This document shows positions 16,220 through 20,732 of a stretch of DNA of 64,000 nt, one piece after another. The position numbers were made by a program, and so were the translations under genes. This DNA comes from Pedobacter chitinilyticus (GTDB lineage: Bacteria; Bacteroidota; Bacteroidia; Sphingobacteriales; Sphingobacteriaceae), in NCBI RefSeq assembly GCF_003313385.1, contig NZ_QMHN01000001.1:645673-709672 (forward strand), in the 5' to 3' direction. Position 1 is the stretch's first letter. Every line of letters starts with the position of its first letter. The notes below the pieces were generated by a model. That model saw nothing but the letters and a program-made list of their open reading frames with translations, did not search any database and had not been told where the DNA came from.

Positions 16220-17272
16220 TTACAGTGCCAAAGTCTGTTGTTCTCCTTTGCTCTTTTCTTCTTTTTCGTACAGATTAGCTGCTCCTGCTATTCTGCGCTT
16301 AATACGTTGAGCTAATATTTTTGGTCCTAACACTTTTACACATTCACCAAATCCCAATATTTCTCTTTCCAATTCATAATTCAATACGACGTCAATTCTG
16401 AATACCGTTGTTTTCTCCTTTTCTGCAACAAGCTCTTGGGTATGATGAAGTGGTTTAGTAATTACATAAGGAGCATTTCGGTTGTCAAATTCTAAAATTA
16501 CCTTATGGGGCCTGTCATTACTGTTTTTGGTGACTCCTATTAAATCGCTATAATAGCGTTCGAAATCAATCCCCTCATGTACTACAAAAGTTTCATTAGG
16601 TAGTTCCTGGAACTCGATAATTCTATCTAAAGCTAAATTCAATAATGAGCCTCCTTTTTTCGCTTTCACAATTAAAAACCATCTATTCCGATATTCTTTT
16701 AATAGATAAGGATAATATATAGCGTTTTGAGATTGTTGTGCCTTAAAAGATTTGTATTCAATGAGTAGAGCAGATTTGTTTAAAATTGCCTGATATAGTT
16801 TGGGTATATATTCCATACCTTTCAATTGGTTATTACTTTCCAATTGAATATAGTTTCCTCCTTCGTGCGTTGATTTGTATAGGTTATTCTCCAGGCGAGC
16901 AATCATGTCGCTCATTTCATCAAAGTAATTGAAAGCATTAAACTGTTTTAAAACACCGACGATTTCCTTCATTTTATCTACATCAGCATTGTTGATGGGT
17001 GCTTTAGTGATGCTATAGCTGGTATCTTCATATACGTAAAACCGTTTGTCTTTAACAATGATAGGCGCATTGTATCCCAATTTATCGCTGCGCATCAATT
17101 GAATATCGGCCTGTATGGTGCGTTTGCTTACGCCCGAAGTAATTCCCTCTAGCTCATACAGCGTTTCGGATACCTTTTCAATAAGGTCTTCTAGAGTCCA
17201 TTTCTTATAACGGTTTTTTAAACAATCGTCGATGGTTTTGTACCTGATTAATGCCAGCTTGTTAATCGCCAT
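16220..17272 (-). CDS. WYL-domain transcriptional regulator
   Basis: A 350-residue regulator. Residues ~1-65 hold a winged helix with SKRTIQADIQLMR as recognition segment. Residues ~155-235 are the WYL domain, recognisable from ALLIEYKSF and YPYLLKEYRNRWFLIV. The rest (~250-330) is a WCX-type C-terminal domain. WYL domains are ligand and nucleic-acid sensors in DNA-damage, CRISPR and phage-defence regulators. The gene is divergent from slipin-rtcB across an 875-bp gap with two copies of a 19-bp palindrome, the nearer one 76 bp upstream of this start. Control of the RNA-repair genes and of itself is a strong inference from layout. Confidence 0.88.
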   Translation of the reverse strand: MAINKLALIRYKTIDDCLKNRYKKWTLEDLIEKVSETLYELEGITSGVSKRTIQADIQLMRSDKLGYNAPIIVKDKRFYVYEDTSYSITKAPINNADVDKMKEIVGVLKQFNAFNYFDEMSDMIARLENNLYKSTHEGGNYIQLESNNQLKGMEYIPKLYQAILNKSALLIEYKSFKAQQSQNAIYYPYLLKEYRNRWFLIVKAKKGGSLLNLALDRIIEFQELPNETFVVHEGIDFERYYSDLIGVTKNSNDRPHKVILEFDNRNAPYVITKPLHHTQELVAEKEKTTVFRIDVVLNYELEREILGFGECVKVLGPKILAQRIKRRIAGAANLYEKEEKSKGEQQTLAL

Positions 17273-17478: not shown

Positions 17479-17551
17479 GTGTTGCTGGCATCTTTGTAAT
17501 GTCGCCAGTCGATAATAGTTCTTTGATTAATATTCATCATGATATAAAGAT

Positions 17552-17572
17552 ATTCCGACCGAAAGTCGGAAT
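17552..17572 (+). ncRNA. Perfect hairpin ahead of the tRNA-like chain
   Basis: ATTCCGAC and GTCGGAAT form an 8-bp perfect stem with the loop CGAAA. No T tract follows, so it is not a typical terminator. It may be the 5' structure of the transcript that contains the tRNA-like units, or a processing site. Confidence 0.5.
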
Positions 17573-17675: not shown

Positions 17676-17752
17676 TCTAATATACGTCTACGTGGGTTCG
17701 AATCCCGCTTCCGCAAATGTGGAATAGCTAAGTGGCTAAGCAACGTAAAAGT
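17676..17752 (+). ncRNA. tRNA-like unit 1, apparently circularly permuted
   Basis: In order: anticodon-loop-like bases with CTA at 17677-17679; TACGT (17683-17687); 4-nt variable loop CTAC; T-arm GTGGG-TTCGAAT-CCCGC (17692-17708); acceptor 3' strand TTCCGCA (17709-17715); AA; acceptor 5' strand TGTGGAA (17718-17724); TA as positions 8-9; D-arm GCT-AAGTGGCTA-AGC (17727-17741) with G18G19; one base; ACGTA (17743-17747). The two acceptor strands pair over 7 bp (one G-U) and ACGTA pairs perfectly with TACGT as a 5-bp anticodon stem. All spacings match a class I tRNA once the halves are joined. The normal-order alternative, 5' strand with TTCCAAA downstream, has a G-A mismatch. The anticodon cannot be fixed because the joining points are unknown. 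Confidence 0.5.
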
Positions 17753-17828
17753 GCAGGTTCGAATCCTGCTTCCAAACCACAATTGGAATCGCATAAGGGT
17801 AGTGCAATGGAGTTTGGATCCATCTAAA
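17753..17828 (+). ncRNA. tRNA-like unit 2, Gln(UUG)-like, apparently permuted
   Basis: T-arm GCAGG-TTCGAAT-CCTGC (17753-17769); acceptor 3' strand TTCCAA (17770-17775); A then CCA (17776-17779); acceptor 5' strand TTGGAA (17783-17788), perfectly complementary; TC; D-arm GCAT-AAGGGTA-GTGC (17791-17805); one base; a closed anticodon arm ATGGA-GTTTGGA-TCCAT (17807-17823). The anticodon position reads UUG (glutamine). No T-arm or matching acceptor strand follows downstream, so the molecule only closes if the upstream T-arm is used, i.e. with the break in the variable loop. Discriminator A and CCA directly after the acceptor strand are further tRNA-like marks. Confidence 0.5.
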
Positions 17829-17830
17829 AA

Positions 17831-17869
17831 GAAGAGATACTTCAAATTTCTCAAAACAACTAGCGTTGT
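17831..17869 (+). ncRNA. Two small hairpins after the tRNA-like units
   Basis: GAAG-AGATA-CTTC (17831-17843) and ACAAC-TAGC-GTTGT (17856-17869, perfect 5-bp stem). They show that the structured RNA region continues past the tRNA-like part. Their role is unknown. Confidence 0.4.
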
Positions 17870-18057
17870 AAAACCACATTTGGCTTAAGGTAAATAACCA
17901 AGAAGCAGTTTGTGTTTTGCTCAGCAAGTGCTAAACAAGTAAGTCGTGATTTTTAAGTCAAGCCTTTTGGCTAATCGTTCGCTCTAGCTGTTGAGGATCA
18001 TCCCCATCATCTAAAACTAGGCAACTGGCTTCACTTTTAAACAAACTTGTGGTTTTA
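17869..18057 (+). ncRNA. Structured leader closed by a 10-bp long-range stem
   Basis: TAAAACCACA (17869-17878) is exactly complementary to TGTGGTTTTA (18048-18057) and would close a ~170-nt domain. Inside is AGCC-TTTT-GGCT (17961-17972) and GGATCATCC near 17994. It lies just before the slipin start at 18148, so it could be the slipin-rtcB leader or an independent small RNA. It does not match a riboswitch class I can recognise. Confidence 0.4.
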
Positions 18058-18147
18058 GCTCTTCCGCAAAAAGATAAATAAATGTGCAATTACAACGCTT
18101 TTTAAAAGCGAATAATTAATAGAAAATAAATTTTAACATCAAAAAAC

Positions 18148-19245
18148 ATGAAAAGAGTAACCGTTAACACCAATAATGTTGGATTGGTGTTTAAAAGAGG
18201 AAAATTAGAAAAAGTATTAACAGTAGGAACTCATTGGATTGGCTTCAGCGAAAGCGCAATGATTTATGATATGAGCAAGGAATATCACTATACTTCAGCA
18301 GAATTAGATATTTTATTGCAGAATGCAGACTTTGTGAATTTGATTCACTTAGTGACCGTAGCCGATAATGAATTGGTATTAACCTATCAAAACAACAACT
18401 TTAAAGGTATCATGAATGCCGGAAGACACGCGATTTGGAAAGGTTTATCTGAATATAATTTTGTTAGGGTGGATACCAGGAACATTGATATTGACGAAAC
18501 GATTGATAAGAATTTGTTAGAAAAGATGCCTTTGTTGAATTATATCAGAGCTTATAAAATCGATTCTTTCGAGAAAGGCTTGTTGTTTATCGATGGTAAA
18601 TTCAATAAGGCGTTAGAACCAGGAAATTATACCTATTGGAAAAATAGTACGACTATTCAGGTTTATAAAGCAGATATGAGGCAATTGAGCATGGAGATTA
18701 GCGGTCAGGAAATTTTAACCAAAGACAAAGCTCAATTGAGGGTTAACTTTAATATCCAATATAAAATTGAGGATATCGAAAAAGCCTTGTTGGAAAACAA
18801 AGAATTCGAGAAACAATTGTACACCACCATGCAATTGGCCTTAAGGGAATTTATTGGCTTGATGACTTTAGACGAGTTGATGGAAAGCAAAGAGAAAGTT
18901 GCGGAAACGGTGATGGACTTAGCCGCTGCTAAAGTTGCTGATTTAGGTGTGAAATTGATCAATAGTGGTGTGAAGGACATTATTTTACCAGGCGATGTGA
19001 AAGAAATCATGAACCAAGTATTAGTGGCCGAGAAAAGAGCGTAGGCCAATATCGTTACAAGAAGGGAAGAAACCGCCTCAACTAGAAGCTTGTTAAATAC
19101 CGCGAAATTAATGGAAGAGAATACGATGTTGTACAAGTTGAAAGAAATGGAGTATGTGGAGAAGATTGCAGAGAAAATCAACAATATCAGCTTGTCTGGT
19201 AGTGGACAAATTGTAGATCAATTGAAACAAATTTTTGTGAAATAA
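18148..19245 (+). pseudogene. Slipin (SPFH/band-7 protein) interrupted by an in-frame TAG
   Basis: Membrane-associated SPFH-family scaffold. The open part is 298 codons (18148-19044) with the SPFH core at ~130-298 (QEILTKDKAQLRVNFNIQYK, GVKDIILPGDVK). At 19042-19044 a TAG falls where slipins have Gln in EKRAQAN, one base from CAG. The same frame then stays open for 66 codons with perfect family sequence (TRREETASTRSLLNTAKLMEEN) to a TAA at 19243-19245, so the full product would be 365 residues. Possible explanations are a recent nonsense mutation, a sequencing error, or programmed readthrough; the intact tail argues that any mutation is very recent. An ATG at 19111 could restart a 44-residue tail piece. 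rtcB follows. Confidence 0.8.
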
Positions 19246-19307: not shown

Positions 19308-20732
19308 ATGAAAACAACTATCACAGGAAGTAACCTTTTAAAAATCGGTTATTCTGAAGGCAAAATATTAGGCTTGGCGTTAAATATCATCGCCGAGCAC
19401 TTTAAAGAGACTAACGAAGCTGAGCTTTTGGCTTTGTTCAAAAAAGTAAAAGAATATCCAGAAAGCTTTTTGGATGATGCAGTGTTGGAAGGCTTGGCAA
19501 AAGCGATGATTGAAGAAGCACAACCTAAAGAAAGTGATACCATTGCATTGGTAAGGAATGCTAAATCGTATACGGTATTTGGTGAAAGCCATATCGAAGA
19601 AGGCGCCAGGAGCCAGATGAATATTGCCATGCGATTACCAGTAACCGAAGCTGGAGCTTTAATGCCAGATGCGCATCAAGGTTATGGTTTGCCTATCGGT
19701 GGGGTGCTGGCTACTAAAAATGCCATTATTCCCTACGGTGTTGGGGTAGATATTGGTTGCAGAATGGCTTTGAGTATTTTTGATATTCCAGAAAAGCATT
19801 ATTTCGGGAAAGACGCCATGTATAAAAGAGAGTTGATTGCCTTTACCAAATTTGGTGCGGGACACGGCTTTAAAGGCGATGAAAGAGCTGATCATGAAGT
19901 GTTGGAAAATGAAGCTTTCTATTCAACGCCTTTCTTAAAGCATTTACATGGTAAGGCTTGGTCGCAATTGGGGACTTCTGGTGGTGGTAACCACTTTGTG
20001 GAGTGGGGTATCATTGAATTTGCCGAGCGAGATGAGGTATTGAATATTGACAAAGGACGTTATGTAGCTTTATTAACGCATTCGGGTTCTAGAGGCTTGG
20101 GTGCCACCATTGCTGGTCACTATACTAAATTGGCCAAAGACCTTTGTAAACTGCCGAAGGAAGCGGCAAACTTGGCTTATTTGGATTTAAACTCTGCAGA
20201 AGGGCAAGAATACTGGATTGCCATGAACTTGGCTGGCGATTATGCTTCTGCCTGTCATGAAATTATCCATAAAAGACTGACCAAAGCTATTGGAGCGAAA
20301 GTGCTTGCAAAGGTAGAGAACCATCATAATTTCGCTTGGAAGGAAACGTTAAATGGCGAAGAAGTGATTGTCCACAGAAAAGGGGCAACACCAGCAGGTA
20401 AAGGTGTGATGGGGATTATCCCAGGGAGTATGACCGCTCCAGGTTTTTTAGTGCGAGGAAAAGGCGAGACTTCTTCTATTAATTCGGCCTCACATGGTGC
20501 AGGGAGATTAATGAGCCGTACAAAAGCCATCCAAAGCATTACACGTTCAGAAATGAAAGCGATTTTAAAAGATCACGGCGTCACCTTAATTGGTGCTGGA
20601 TTAGATGAAGCACCAATGGCTTATAAAGACATTCACCAAGTAATGGCTGCACAAACCGATTTGGTAGATGTTGTCGCAAAATTTGAGCCTAAAATGGTGA
20701 GAATGGCCGATGACGGTAGTAGAGAAGACTAA
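19308..20732 (+). CDS. rtcB: RtcB RNA ligase
   Basis: GTP- and Mn-dependent ligase that joins 2',3'-cyclic-phosphate or 3'-phosphate ends to 5'-OH ends of RNA. The ATG at 19308 is chosen over an upstream TTG that lies inside the intercistronic hairpin; the product is 474 residues. Metal and guanylate-binding motifs are all present: MPDAHQGYGLPIGGV, GVDIGCRM, GGGNHFVEWG, LTHSGSRGLG, ENHHNFAW, HRKGATPAG, and the guanylated-His region SASHGAGRLMSR near residue 400. No archease, RtcA or Ro-protein gene is present. The position after slipin and opposite a WYL regulator marks an RNA-repair locus; the substrates may be the tRNA-like RNAs encoded upstream or damaged tRNAs. Confidence 0.96.
   Translation: MKTTITGSNLLKIGYSEGKILGLALNIIAEHFKETNEAELLALFKKVKEYPESFLDDAVLEGLAKAMIEEAQPKESDTIALVRNAKSYTVFGESHIEEGARSQMNIAMRLPVTEAGALMPDAHQGYGLPIGGVLATKNAIIPYGVGVDIGCRMALSIFDIPEKHYFGKDAMYKRELIAFTKFGAGHGFKGDERADHEVLENEAFYSTPFLKHLHGKAWSQLGTSGGGNHFVEWGIIEFAERDEVLNIDKGRYVALLTHSGSRGLGATIAGHYTKLAKDLCKLPKEAANLAYLDLNSAEGQEYWIAMNLAGDYASACHEIIHKRLTKAIGAKVLAKVENHHNFAWKETLNGEEVIVHRKGATPAGKGVMGIIPGSMTAPGFLVRGKGETSSINSASHGAGRLMSRTKAIQSITRSEMKAILKDHGVTLIGAGLDEAPMAYKDIHQVMAAQTDLVDVVAKFEPKMVRMADDGSRED

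What the first reader, a model, noticed from the sequence alone, without database searches (positions are those of the whole stretch)
17676..17828. Tandem tRNA-like units in circularly permuted order next to rtcB
Seen: two T-arms with TTCGAAT loops, each followed by an acceptor 3' strand, a short linker (AA or ACCACAA) and then the acceptor 5' strand that pairs with it (TTCCGCA/TGTGGAA, 7 bp with one G-U; TTCCAA/TTGGAA, 6 bp perfect), positions 8-9 and a D-arm with G18G19. In unit 1 ACGTA after the D-arm pairs with TACGT before the T-arm as a 5-bp anticodon stem, with a 4-nt variable loop. Unit 2 has a closed anticodon arm (UUG) but no T-arm after it. Known: permuted tRNA genes (3' half before 5' half) are described in red and green algae and a few archaea and need end-joining; RtcB is a tRNA-splicing ligase in archaea and animals. 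I know of no bacterial example. Inference: these are permuted tRNAs, or tRNA mimics, processed or sensed by this RNA-repair locus.
Basis: partly seen in the sequence, partly recalled or inferred. Interest (0 to 1): 0.92.

Follow-up and report, generated by a model that had tools for sequence, protein, structure and literature searches.

The report
Tandem tRNA-mimic RNA beside slipin
Upstream of a slipin gene in an RNA-repair locus lies a conserved RNA made of two tRNA-shaped modules whose arms come in rearranged order, like the Y RNAs that partner the Ro60 protein elsewhere, so it is probably the RNA partner of the slipin rather than a set of tRNA genes.

Summary
91 of 92 distinct slipin loci examined (window included) carry such T-arms within 640 nt upstream of slipin; the other has a pair at about 800 nt. 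At 140 of 169 T-arms the acceptor strand closes as a hairpin of 5 bp or more. In 46 aligned loci the permuted acceptor helices covary (95% paired, score 0.71); the normal-order alternative has 62% and 0.21, a score 86 of 500 shuffles reach. The constant neighbour is the slipin (16 of 16 strong model hits), not rtcB (52 of 80 loci). Rfam's Y RNA-like family YrlA has the same module and matches a unit in 19 of 20 other loci, always below its cut-off; no Ro60 gene was found in this genome. In four same-class rtcB loci a Ro60 (TROVE) gene lies where slipin would be, three of them with a YrlA match. Best reading: a tRNA-mimic RNA partner of an SPFH slipin in tRNA repair, working like Y RNA with Ro60. 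An SPFH-linked tRNA-like RNA was, as I recall, predicted in 2016 (paper not held). The function is inferred.

The parts
16220..17272 (-). WYL/WCX-domain regulator, divergent from the RNA
   Evidence: Pfam WYL 36.7 bits, WCX 42.4 bits
17460..17479 (.). possible operator: imperfect inverted repeat GCGCAA...TTGCGT
   Evidence: seen in the sequence; a similar repeat is visible in 5 of the 9 rows printed (window, L002, L022, L025, L028); binding not tested
17493..17525 (+). possible promoter TTTG-N25-TTTG (Bacteroidota-like -33/-7), with an inverted repeat between the boxes in several relatives
   Evidence: pattern within 1 kb upstream of slipin in 27 of 29 Pedobacter-group loci, mostly not found by this pattern in the more distant loci; the consensus is recalled
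17552..17572 (+). 5' hairpin of the leader, stem sequence varies between relatives
   Evidence: missing from L028 among the rows printed
17683..17747 (+). unit 1: permuted tRNA-like module (anticodon-stem 3' strand, variable region, T-arm, acceptor hairpin, nt 8-9, D-arm, anticodon-stem 5' strand); its ends lie at the anticodon-loop position
   Evidence: energy fold agrees except for the D-arm
17753..17823 (+). unit 2: permuted tRNA-like module with all four arms (T-arm, acceptor hairpin, nt 8-9, D-arm, closed anticodon arm with UUG); its ends lie at the variable-loop position
   Evidence: energy fold alone does not show it
17829..17853 (+). probable H-type pseudoknot following unit 2 (GAAG/CTTC with GAGA/TCTC in the window, read by eye)
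   Evidence: relatives: 40 of 64 loci with the first stem also have the second, 13.9 expected, 26 different second-stem pairs; the window and most Pedobacter rows were not called by this script
17854..18147 (+). rest of the leader up to the slipin start, partly conserved with a poor stretch near 17970-18029; no terminator-like site on the + strand between the units and slipin
18148..19044 (+). slipin (SPFH/Band 7) gene, ends early at an in-frame TAG (298 aa); 88 of 91 relatives have 358-374 aa from the matched start
19311..20732 (+). rtcB, RNA ligase
   Evidence: Pfam RtcB 275.9 bits

Best explanation
It is a structured RNA that carries two tRNA-mimic modules in permuted order and is the RNA partner of the slipin encoded just downstream. 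Shown: each module is T-arm, acceptor hairpin, nt 8-9, D-arm; the helices covary; the D-loop GG and the T-loop are kept, so each module could fold into a tRNA-like L with its acceptor end closed by a short loop; the RNA is tied to one family of slipins, often in RNA-repair neighbourhoods. Inferred: transcribed as the leader of the regulated slipin(-rtcB) transcript when tRNAs are damaged, it binds the SPFH slipin ring and, by looking like tRNA, docks tRNA-handling enzymes or damaged tRNAs on it so that RtcB can reseal them. That is how Y RNA may work with Ro60 (Rsr). It does not become a translating tRNA.
For: Permuted structure and covariation. Three of unit 1's four helices appear in its minimum-energy fold. 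Same order as YrlA: matches at a unit in 10 of 10 loci at 29.9-44.2 bits and in 9 of 10 more at 29.8-47.4 bits. Constant partner: 16 of 16 covariance-model hits of 86 bits or more (the window's own included) lie upstream of a slipin; the 14 fetched hits at 85 bits or less do not. L066 has the RNA and slipin with no RtcB, WYL or tRNA found in the stretch held. Repair context: RtcB in 52, tRNA genes in 31 and WYL in 35 of 80 loci (lower bounds because flanks are 3 kb or less); RtcR and RlaP beside the Citrobacter slipin. Interchange: 4 of 5 fetched same-class rtcB loci have TROVE and no slipin match, 3 of them with a YrlA match. The slipin model has three repeats of the SPFH beta subdomain, the last within the SPFH domain, then a long helix. 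Published: in Anabaena rtcB, a slipin and a 26-tRNA operon are repressed by one regulator (PMC10272220, passages seen).
Against: No transcript, binding or phenotype data. A leader joined to the slipin mRNA could act only in cis. All YrlA scores lie under the family's cut-off of 69, and YrlA also gives 23.5-33.6 bits on ordinary neighbouring tRNAs (L123, L030), so the window's own 24.4 bits proves nothing alone. Energy folding gives unit 2 another fold and L030's units no more stability than shuffles. In the TROVE loci the YrlA match follows TROVE, whereas here the RNA precedes slipin. Outside Bacteroidota the element is not uniform: Burkholderia and Photobacterium have normal-order tRNA-like sequences upstream of slipin, E. 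coli and Citrobacter only a T-arm plus hairpin. The rows of A1 were chosen for having hairpins of at least 4 bp in both units, which inflates the share of paired cells. The window's own slipin is interrupted.
Confidence: 0.55

Rival explanations
1. Cis-acting leader: the tRNA-like modules sit in the slipin(-rtcB) mRNA and sense the state of the cell's tRNA machinery (binding of RtcB, a tRNA-modifying enzyme or a tRNA nuclease), switching expression. No separate RNA is made.
For: Last T-arm 319-582 nt upstream of the slipin match in 91 of 92 loci; conservation resumes up to the slipin start after a poor stretch; no + strand terminator-like site between the units and the gene; a pseudoknot follows unit 2.
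Against: Distance to the gene and part of the intervening sequence vary; the related YrlA works in trans (PMC8394870, passages seen). I did not search for alternative (switch) structures.
Confidence: 0.27
2. Decoy or bait for anticodon nucleases: the last module, with a closed anticodon arm of varying triplet, is cut instead of cellular tRNAs, or its cleavage reports the attack, and RtcB reseals it.
For: 49 of 89 last units have a closed 5-bp/7-nt arm at the anticodon position (3.3 expected), with U33 in 40 and a purine at 37 in 46 of the 49, and 22 different triplets. A looser position window gave 63 of 89, 8.6 expected, 27 triplets.
Against: 40 of 89 last units lack it. Fragments of the Salmonella YrlA were not seen when tRNAs were cut (PMC7790460, passages seen).
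Confidence: 0.1
3. Permuted tRNA genes: the transcript is circularised (RtcB), then cut at the linker to give working tRNAs.
For: Order of parts and intact cloverleaf elements; RtcB nearby in 52 of 80 loci.
Against: Linkers 2-10 nt; CCA in 20 of 140 linkers; 17 of 140 hairpins have GNRA or UUCG caps; anticodon not conserved; unit 1's anticodon end is an open stem; no RtcB match in one RNA-bearing genome, G436 (31 of 32 have one).
Confidence: 0.05
4. Remnant of a decayed tRNA array, without function.
For: Real tRNA arrays lie beside many relatives; neighbouring tRNAs give weak matches to the same models; RF00005 scores 34.7 bits, above its cut-off of 29, on 17718-17777 read in normal order (not reported by the default filters).
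Against: Compensatory changes in every permuted helix, and a covariation score within shuffles for normal order; kept in 92 of 92 loci across several families.
Confidence: 0.01

Closest known systems
Bacterial Y RNA YrlA (Rfam RF02553) with Ro60/Rsr (TROVE, PF05731)
   Same: Same permuted order T-arm, acceptor hairpin, D-arm inside a basal stem; found in RtcB loci; tRNA mimicry (PMC8394870 and PMC7790460, passages seen).
   Different: Two modules in tandem, the second often with a closed anticodon arm; partner gene is a slipin, no TROVE gene found in this genome; scores 24-47 bits against a cut-off of 69; inside a long slipin leader.
SPFH/Band-7 scaffold with a 'novel tRNA-like molecule' in RNA-repair systems (Burroughs and Aravind 2016, NAR 44:8525)
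   Same: As I recall its abstract, it names exactly this pairing beside TROVE with Y RNAs. Only the reference entry was seen; the paper is not held.
   Different: Whether it describes the permuted tandem order, the covariation or Bacteroidota loci could not be checked.
Circularly permuted tRNA genes of algae and archaea
   Same: 3' part before 5' part (PMC3978253, search listing only; details recalled).
   Different: No sign of processing to a tRNA; closed short linkers; no conserved anticodon.
tmRNA, including its two-piece permuted form
   Same: tRNA-like domain with pseudoknots (general knowledge); weak match of 14.9 bits here.
   Different: This genome has an ordinary ssrA elsewhere (125.5 bits); two canonical D-arms here.
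Anabaena trn operon, rtcB and slipin regulon (TrcR)
   Same: One regulator represses tRNA array, rtcB and a slipin (PMC10272220, passages seen).
   Different: TrcR is an RHH protein, not WYL; no tRNA-mimic RNA is mentioned in the passages seen.

Membership tests
YrlA (RF02553) | permuted T-arm, acceptor hairpin, D-arm inside a basal stem | tested here: met
YrlA (RF02553) | score at or above the curated gathering cut-off (69 bits) | tested here: not met
   window 24.4 bits; best of 20 other loci tested 47.4, one (L134) without a match
YrlA (RF02553) | Ro60 (TROVE) gene in the genome or beside it | tested here: not met
   0 of 41 genomes, own included; 1 of 32 genomes that carry the locus, G241, and there about 30 kb from the slipin RNA
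YrlA (RF02553) | binds Ro60/PNPase as an RNP | not testable with these tools
   needs biochemistry
permuted tRNA gene | 3' part precedes 5' part, helices supported by covariation | tested here: met
permuted tRNA gene | conserved decoding identity | tested here: not met
   22 different triplets among 49 last units with a closed arm
permuted tRNA gene | mature CCA-ended tRNA produced | not testable with these tools
   CCA in only 20 of 140 linkers
ordinary tRNA (RF00005) | called as tRNA by ARAGORN | tested here: not met
   0 genes in the window
ordinary tRNA (RF00005) | normal-order acceptor stem under selection | tested here: not met
   covariation 0.214, 86 of 500 shuffles as high; 62.3% paired, 16 of 500 as high
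tmRNA (RF00023) | score at or above 47 bits; the genome's ssrA | tested here: not met
   14.9 bits here; ssrA at C2:1467546
SPFH/Band-7 with tRNA-like RNA (2016) | tRNA-like RNA coded next to an SPFH gene of an RNA-repair locus | tested here: met
   the definition itself is recalled
Major vault protein | beta repeats plus SPFH-like shoulder plus cap helix | tested here: inconclusive
   Full model: MVP at Foldseek E 1.5e-9, VIA Z 11.5 to 4v60 over 255 residues, rmsd 32.5; N-terminal part alone: no Foldseek match at E 0.001 or better, best Z 7.0 to erlin over 43 residues, MVP about 4.6

The most novel reading that the evidence does not exclude
Slipin and RNA form an unrecognised ribonucleoprotein: an SPFH ring or cage with extra SPFH1-type beta repeats (an arrangement that recalls the major vault protein), loaded with a double permuted-tRNA RNA, which replaces the Ro60/Y RNA particle in RNA repair. 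The second module's anticodon arm, with its varying triplet, serves as bait for anticodon nucleases, and the nicked RNA is the signal or first substrate for RtcB.
Probability: 0.12. Interest if true: 0.88.

Novelty: new variant of a known kind. Interest (0 to 1): 0.64.

Why it matters
It gives a precise, covariation-backed structure to a tRNA-like RNA beside SPFH slipins and shows that, with RtcB, two scaffold proteins of different fold (Ro60 and slipin) can each stand with a permuted tRNA mimic. That makes a clear question testable: do some SPFH proteins, best known as membrane organisers, build RNA-containing particles? A slipin-nucleotidyltransferase form of the locus, with a reduced T-arm and hairpin upstream, is present in 1624 of 5426 complete E. 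coli genomes, including the laboratory strain W, so tests are within easy reach.

Tried and rejected
Chance: rejected by conservation and covariation. Decayed tRNA array: rejected. tmRNA: rejected. Phage origin: no slipin relative in 50,697 phage records nor confirmed in the viral contigs. Ro60 partner in this genome: none found.

Covariance model R1 at E <= 0.001 rings in 326 of 395 genomes; the weaker hits that I looked at are mostly ordinary neighbouring tRNAs. Only hits of 86 bits or more were used, a cut chosen after looking at the 30 fetched loci. A first pseudoknot script gave mixed results and was replaced. The first count of anticodon arms used a loose position window and included hairpins that are probably not anticodon arms; the stricter recount is. 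Energy folding of single units was weak support. Vault relationship: suggestive on the full model, not confirmed on the N-terminal part. VIA-align listed stomatin, prohibitin, erlin, flotillin and MVP among the best matches; absence of other folds there is not evidence.

Papers: 10 searches. None of the listings showed a tandem permuted tRNA-like RNA upstream of slipin ('SPFH' with 'tRNA-like': 0 papers), but the most relevant papers are not held, so I do not claim it is unpublished.

Partial inputs: ARAGORN through find_trnas got 32 of the 110 loci then held, all 80 genome-contig loci. A1 holds 46 of the 65 loci parsed with two units at 55-72 nt spacing, picked by hand for spread. YrlA was tested on the window and on 20 other slipin loci picked by hand, 5 plasmid loci and 5 rtcB loci. 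Of 8 plasmid records in which the slipin match covers 80% or more, 5 were read. The five rtcB loci were picked because R1 had a weak hit beside rtcB.

Full report
What is there. Between a divergent WYL regulator (16220-17272, minus strand) and a slipin gene (18148 onward), the window holds an 875-nt intergenic stretch. At 17683-17823 it contains two tRNA-like modules in permuted order. Each runs T-arm, acceptor 3' strand, short linker, acceptor 5' strand, two bases, D-arm. In unit 1 the strands before the T-arm and after the D-arm pair as an anticodon-type stem. In unit 2 a closed anticodon arm follows the D-arm. ARAGORN calls no tRNA and Rfam at curated thresholds finds nothing in the window. 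With laxer filters the stretch gives RF00005 34.7 bits in normal order (above that family's cut-off of 29), YrlA 24.4 bits and tmRNA 14.9 bits.

Is it real? Slipin relatives were fetched from 80 genome contigs and from a family-wide search of 151 genomes. After removing duplicates and 11 distant SPFH hits, 92 loci remain, the window included. 91 have at least one T-arm within 640 nt upstream of slipin, and the last (L034) has a pair further up. The 11 distant SPFH hits have none. Of 169 T-arms, 140 are followed at once by a perfect hairpin of 5 bp or more, with 64 different 5-bp cores; shuffled sequence averages 1.8 bp against 5.6 observed. Some T-arms without a hairpin belong to ordinary tRNAs in the same stretch (for example L063-L065).

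Permuted or normal order? In alignment A1 (46 loci, chosen for having both hairpins, so the share of paired cells is inflated) the full permuted structure has 90.2% of cells paired and 30 of 34 pairs with changes on both sides; none of 500 shuffles reaches the covariation score. The two acceptor helices alone reach 95.4% and 0.708. The alternative in which unit 1's 5' strand pairs with unit 2's 3' strand, as in a broken normal-order tRNA, has a covariation score of 0.214, reached by 86 of 500 shuffles; its 62.3% of paired cells is reached by 16 of 500. The anticodon-type stem of unit 1 is supported too: 5 bp or more in 47 of 66 loci against 21% of shuffles, 4 bp or more in 65 of 66 against 49%. 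Unit 2's D-arm is badly aligned in A1 (55% paired), because its loop length varies. GG is present in the D-loop stretch of 138 of 140 units and TA at positions 8-9 in 108 of 140, so the D-loop/T-loop contact of a tRNA elbow could form. Energy folding is weaker evidence: the minimum-energy fold of the window's unit 1 (z -2.77) shows the anticodon-type stem, T-arm and acceptor hairpin but another D hairpin; unit 2 folds otherwise; L030's units are not more stable than shuffles.

Not a working tRNA. CCA occurs in 20 of 140 linkers. 17 of 140 hairpins have GNRA or UUCG caps. The last unit has a closed arm at the anticodon position in 49 of 89 loci (3.3 expected), with U33 in 40 and a purine at 37 in 46, but with 22 different triplets (a looser count gave 63, 8.6 expected, 27 triplets). 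It therefore looks like a generic tRNA mimic rather than a decoder of one codon. A probable H-type pseudoknot follows unit 2: 40 of 64 loci with the first stem also have the second (13.9 expected), with 26 different second-stem pairs. The window's own pseudoknot was read by eye, because the script missed the Pedobacter form.

Which gene does it belong to? A covariance model from A1 was run on 395 genomes of the phylum. At E <= 0.001 it rings in 326, many of them at ordinary neighbouring tRNAs. Of the 30 loci fetched, the 16 at 86 bits or more all have slipin downstream (16 of 16, the window's own included); the other 14 have no slipin. Several of the 16 are far from, or on another contig than, the rtcB match (G386, G486, G463, G455). 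Around 80 slipin loci, rtcB was found in 52, tRNA genes in 31 and WYL in 35 (flanks are 3 kb or less, so these are lower bounds). L066 has the RNA and slipin with none of these in the stretch held. In many of the more distant loci real tRNA genes stand close by, up to 19 in L030; L044 also has RNase H-like and AAA genes.

Relation to Y RNA. YrlA's own structure line shows T-arm, acceptor hairpin, two bases, D-arm inside a basal stem, the same module. YrlA matches a unit in 10 of 10 further loci at 29.9-44.2 bits and in 9 of 10 more at 29.8-47.4 bits (L134 has none), always under the cut-off of 69. Against this, YrlA also gives 23.5-33.6 bits on neighbouring ordinary tRNAs (L123, L030), so low scores alone do not show kinship. 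No Ro60 gene was found in 41 genomes, own included, and one in 32 genomes chosen for carrying the RNA-slipin locus. That one, G241, has TROVE beside its rtcB, about 30 kb from its slipin RNA. In five rtcB loci of unnamed same-class genomes, fetched because of weak model hits, four carry a TROVE protein (L155, L157, L158, L159), three of these a YrlA match between TROVE and rtcB (L155, L157, L159), and none a slipin match; a divergent WYL gene was confirmed by Pfam in one (L157). So beside RtcB, Ro60 with its Y-like RNA and slipin with the tandem RNA appear to take each other's place, with the difference that the RNA follows TROVE but precedes slipin.

Beyond Bacteroidota. Of eight plasmid-collection records with a near-full-length slipin match, five were read. 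Citrobacter has rtcR, slipin and RlaP (RlaP by Pfam), with a T-arm plus 6-bp hairpin upstream of slipin; E. coli has a similar reduced element with a 7-bp hairpin; in both the T-arm stem has a mismatch. A Clostridia record has two T-arms, the second with a 7-bp hairpin. Burkholderia and Photobacterium have normal-order tRNA-like sequences there. The association with slipin is thus broader than the permuted order. The E. coli slipin-nucleotidyltransferase locus is in 1624 of 5426 complete genomes, including strain W. In Pseudomonas PA14 one SPFH gene lies inside the rtc locus (PMC13086221, passage seen).

The slipin. Among curated matches Pfam finds only Band 7 at 138-308. A model from an alignment of 40 relatives (mean pLDDT 79.6) shows three five-stranded repeats, the last within the SPFH domain, and a long helix; I see no membrane-spanning stretch (no predictor was run). 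Best structural matches are stomatin-type SPFH proteins; MVP also appears. The N-terminal part alone matches the first SPFH subdomain of erlin and prohibitin over about 43 residues (Z up to 7.0) and MVP repeats weakly (about 4.6). A vault-like design is an idea, not a result. The window's own slipin stops at an in-frame TAG (19042-19044), while 88 of 91 relatives have 358-374 aa from the matched start; I cannot tell a true nonsense change from a sequence error.

How it most likely works. Published work, seen as passages only, gives the frame: damaged tRNAs switch on rtcBA operons, some of which carry Rsr and Y RNAs (PMC7790460); YrlA tethers Rsr to PNPase and is modified like tRNA (PMC8394870); in Anabaena rtcB, a slipin and a tRNA operon share one repressor and respond to translation stress (PMC10272220). 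My reading is that the tandem RNA is the slipin's counterpart of Y RNA. Cis regulation is the main rival and cannot be excluded from sequence.

Novelty. From memory, the abstract of Burroughs and Aravind 2016 names SPFH/Band-7 scaffolds with 'a novel tRNA-like molecule' beside TROVE with Y RNAs; the text is not held here, so I could not check how far its description goes. I therefore rate this a new variant of a known kind. No Rfam 15 family matches it at curated thresholds with the default filters (whole window).

Noticed in passing
window 19042-19044: In-frame TAG cuts the window's slipin to 298 aa, losing the C-terminal helix; 88 of 91 relatives have 358-374 aa from the matched start (L095 and L099 are also short in frame, L045 is cut by its contig end).
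   Followed up: partly
L030:1280-5635, L044, L045, L046, L071, L080, L123: Arrays of ordinary tRNA genes (up to 19) flank the RNA-slipin pair; they look like a stress-inducible spare tRNA set, as in Anabaena.
   Followed up: partly
L155, L157, L158, L159: rtcB loci of unnamed same-class genomes with a Ro60 (TROVE) protein; three of the four have a YrlA-like match.
   Followed up: yes
L156:4532-4651 (-): An rtcB locus without TROVE has a 748-aa protein without a Pfam family above its cut-off and a tmRNA-like match of 27.7 bits, below the cut-off; a possible further scaffold with a tRNA-like RNA.
   Followed up: no
window 17493-17525: Promoter-like boxes enclose an inverted repeat (TGTCR..YGACA) in several Pedobacter-group loci, possibly an operator of the divergent WYL regulator.
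   Followed up: no
L044:768-2397: RNase H-like (PF04308) and AAA ATPase genes lie between the tRNA array and the RNA-slipin pair.
   Followed up: no
L154:3309-6195 (E. coli W): slipin and a nucleotidyltransferase gene followed by a zeta-toxin family gene on the other strand; 1624 of 5426 complete E. coli genomes match the slipin-nucleotidyltransferase stretch.
   Followed up: no
window 17552-17572 and 18060-18104: Further conserved blocks of the leader (a 5' hairpin and a block close to the slipin start) with no Rfam match.
   Followed up: no
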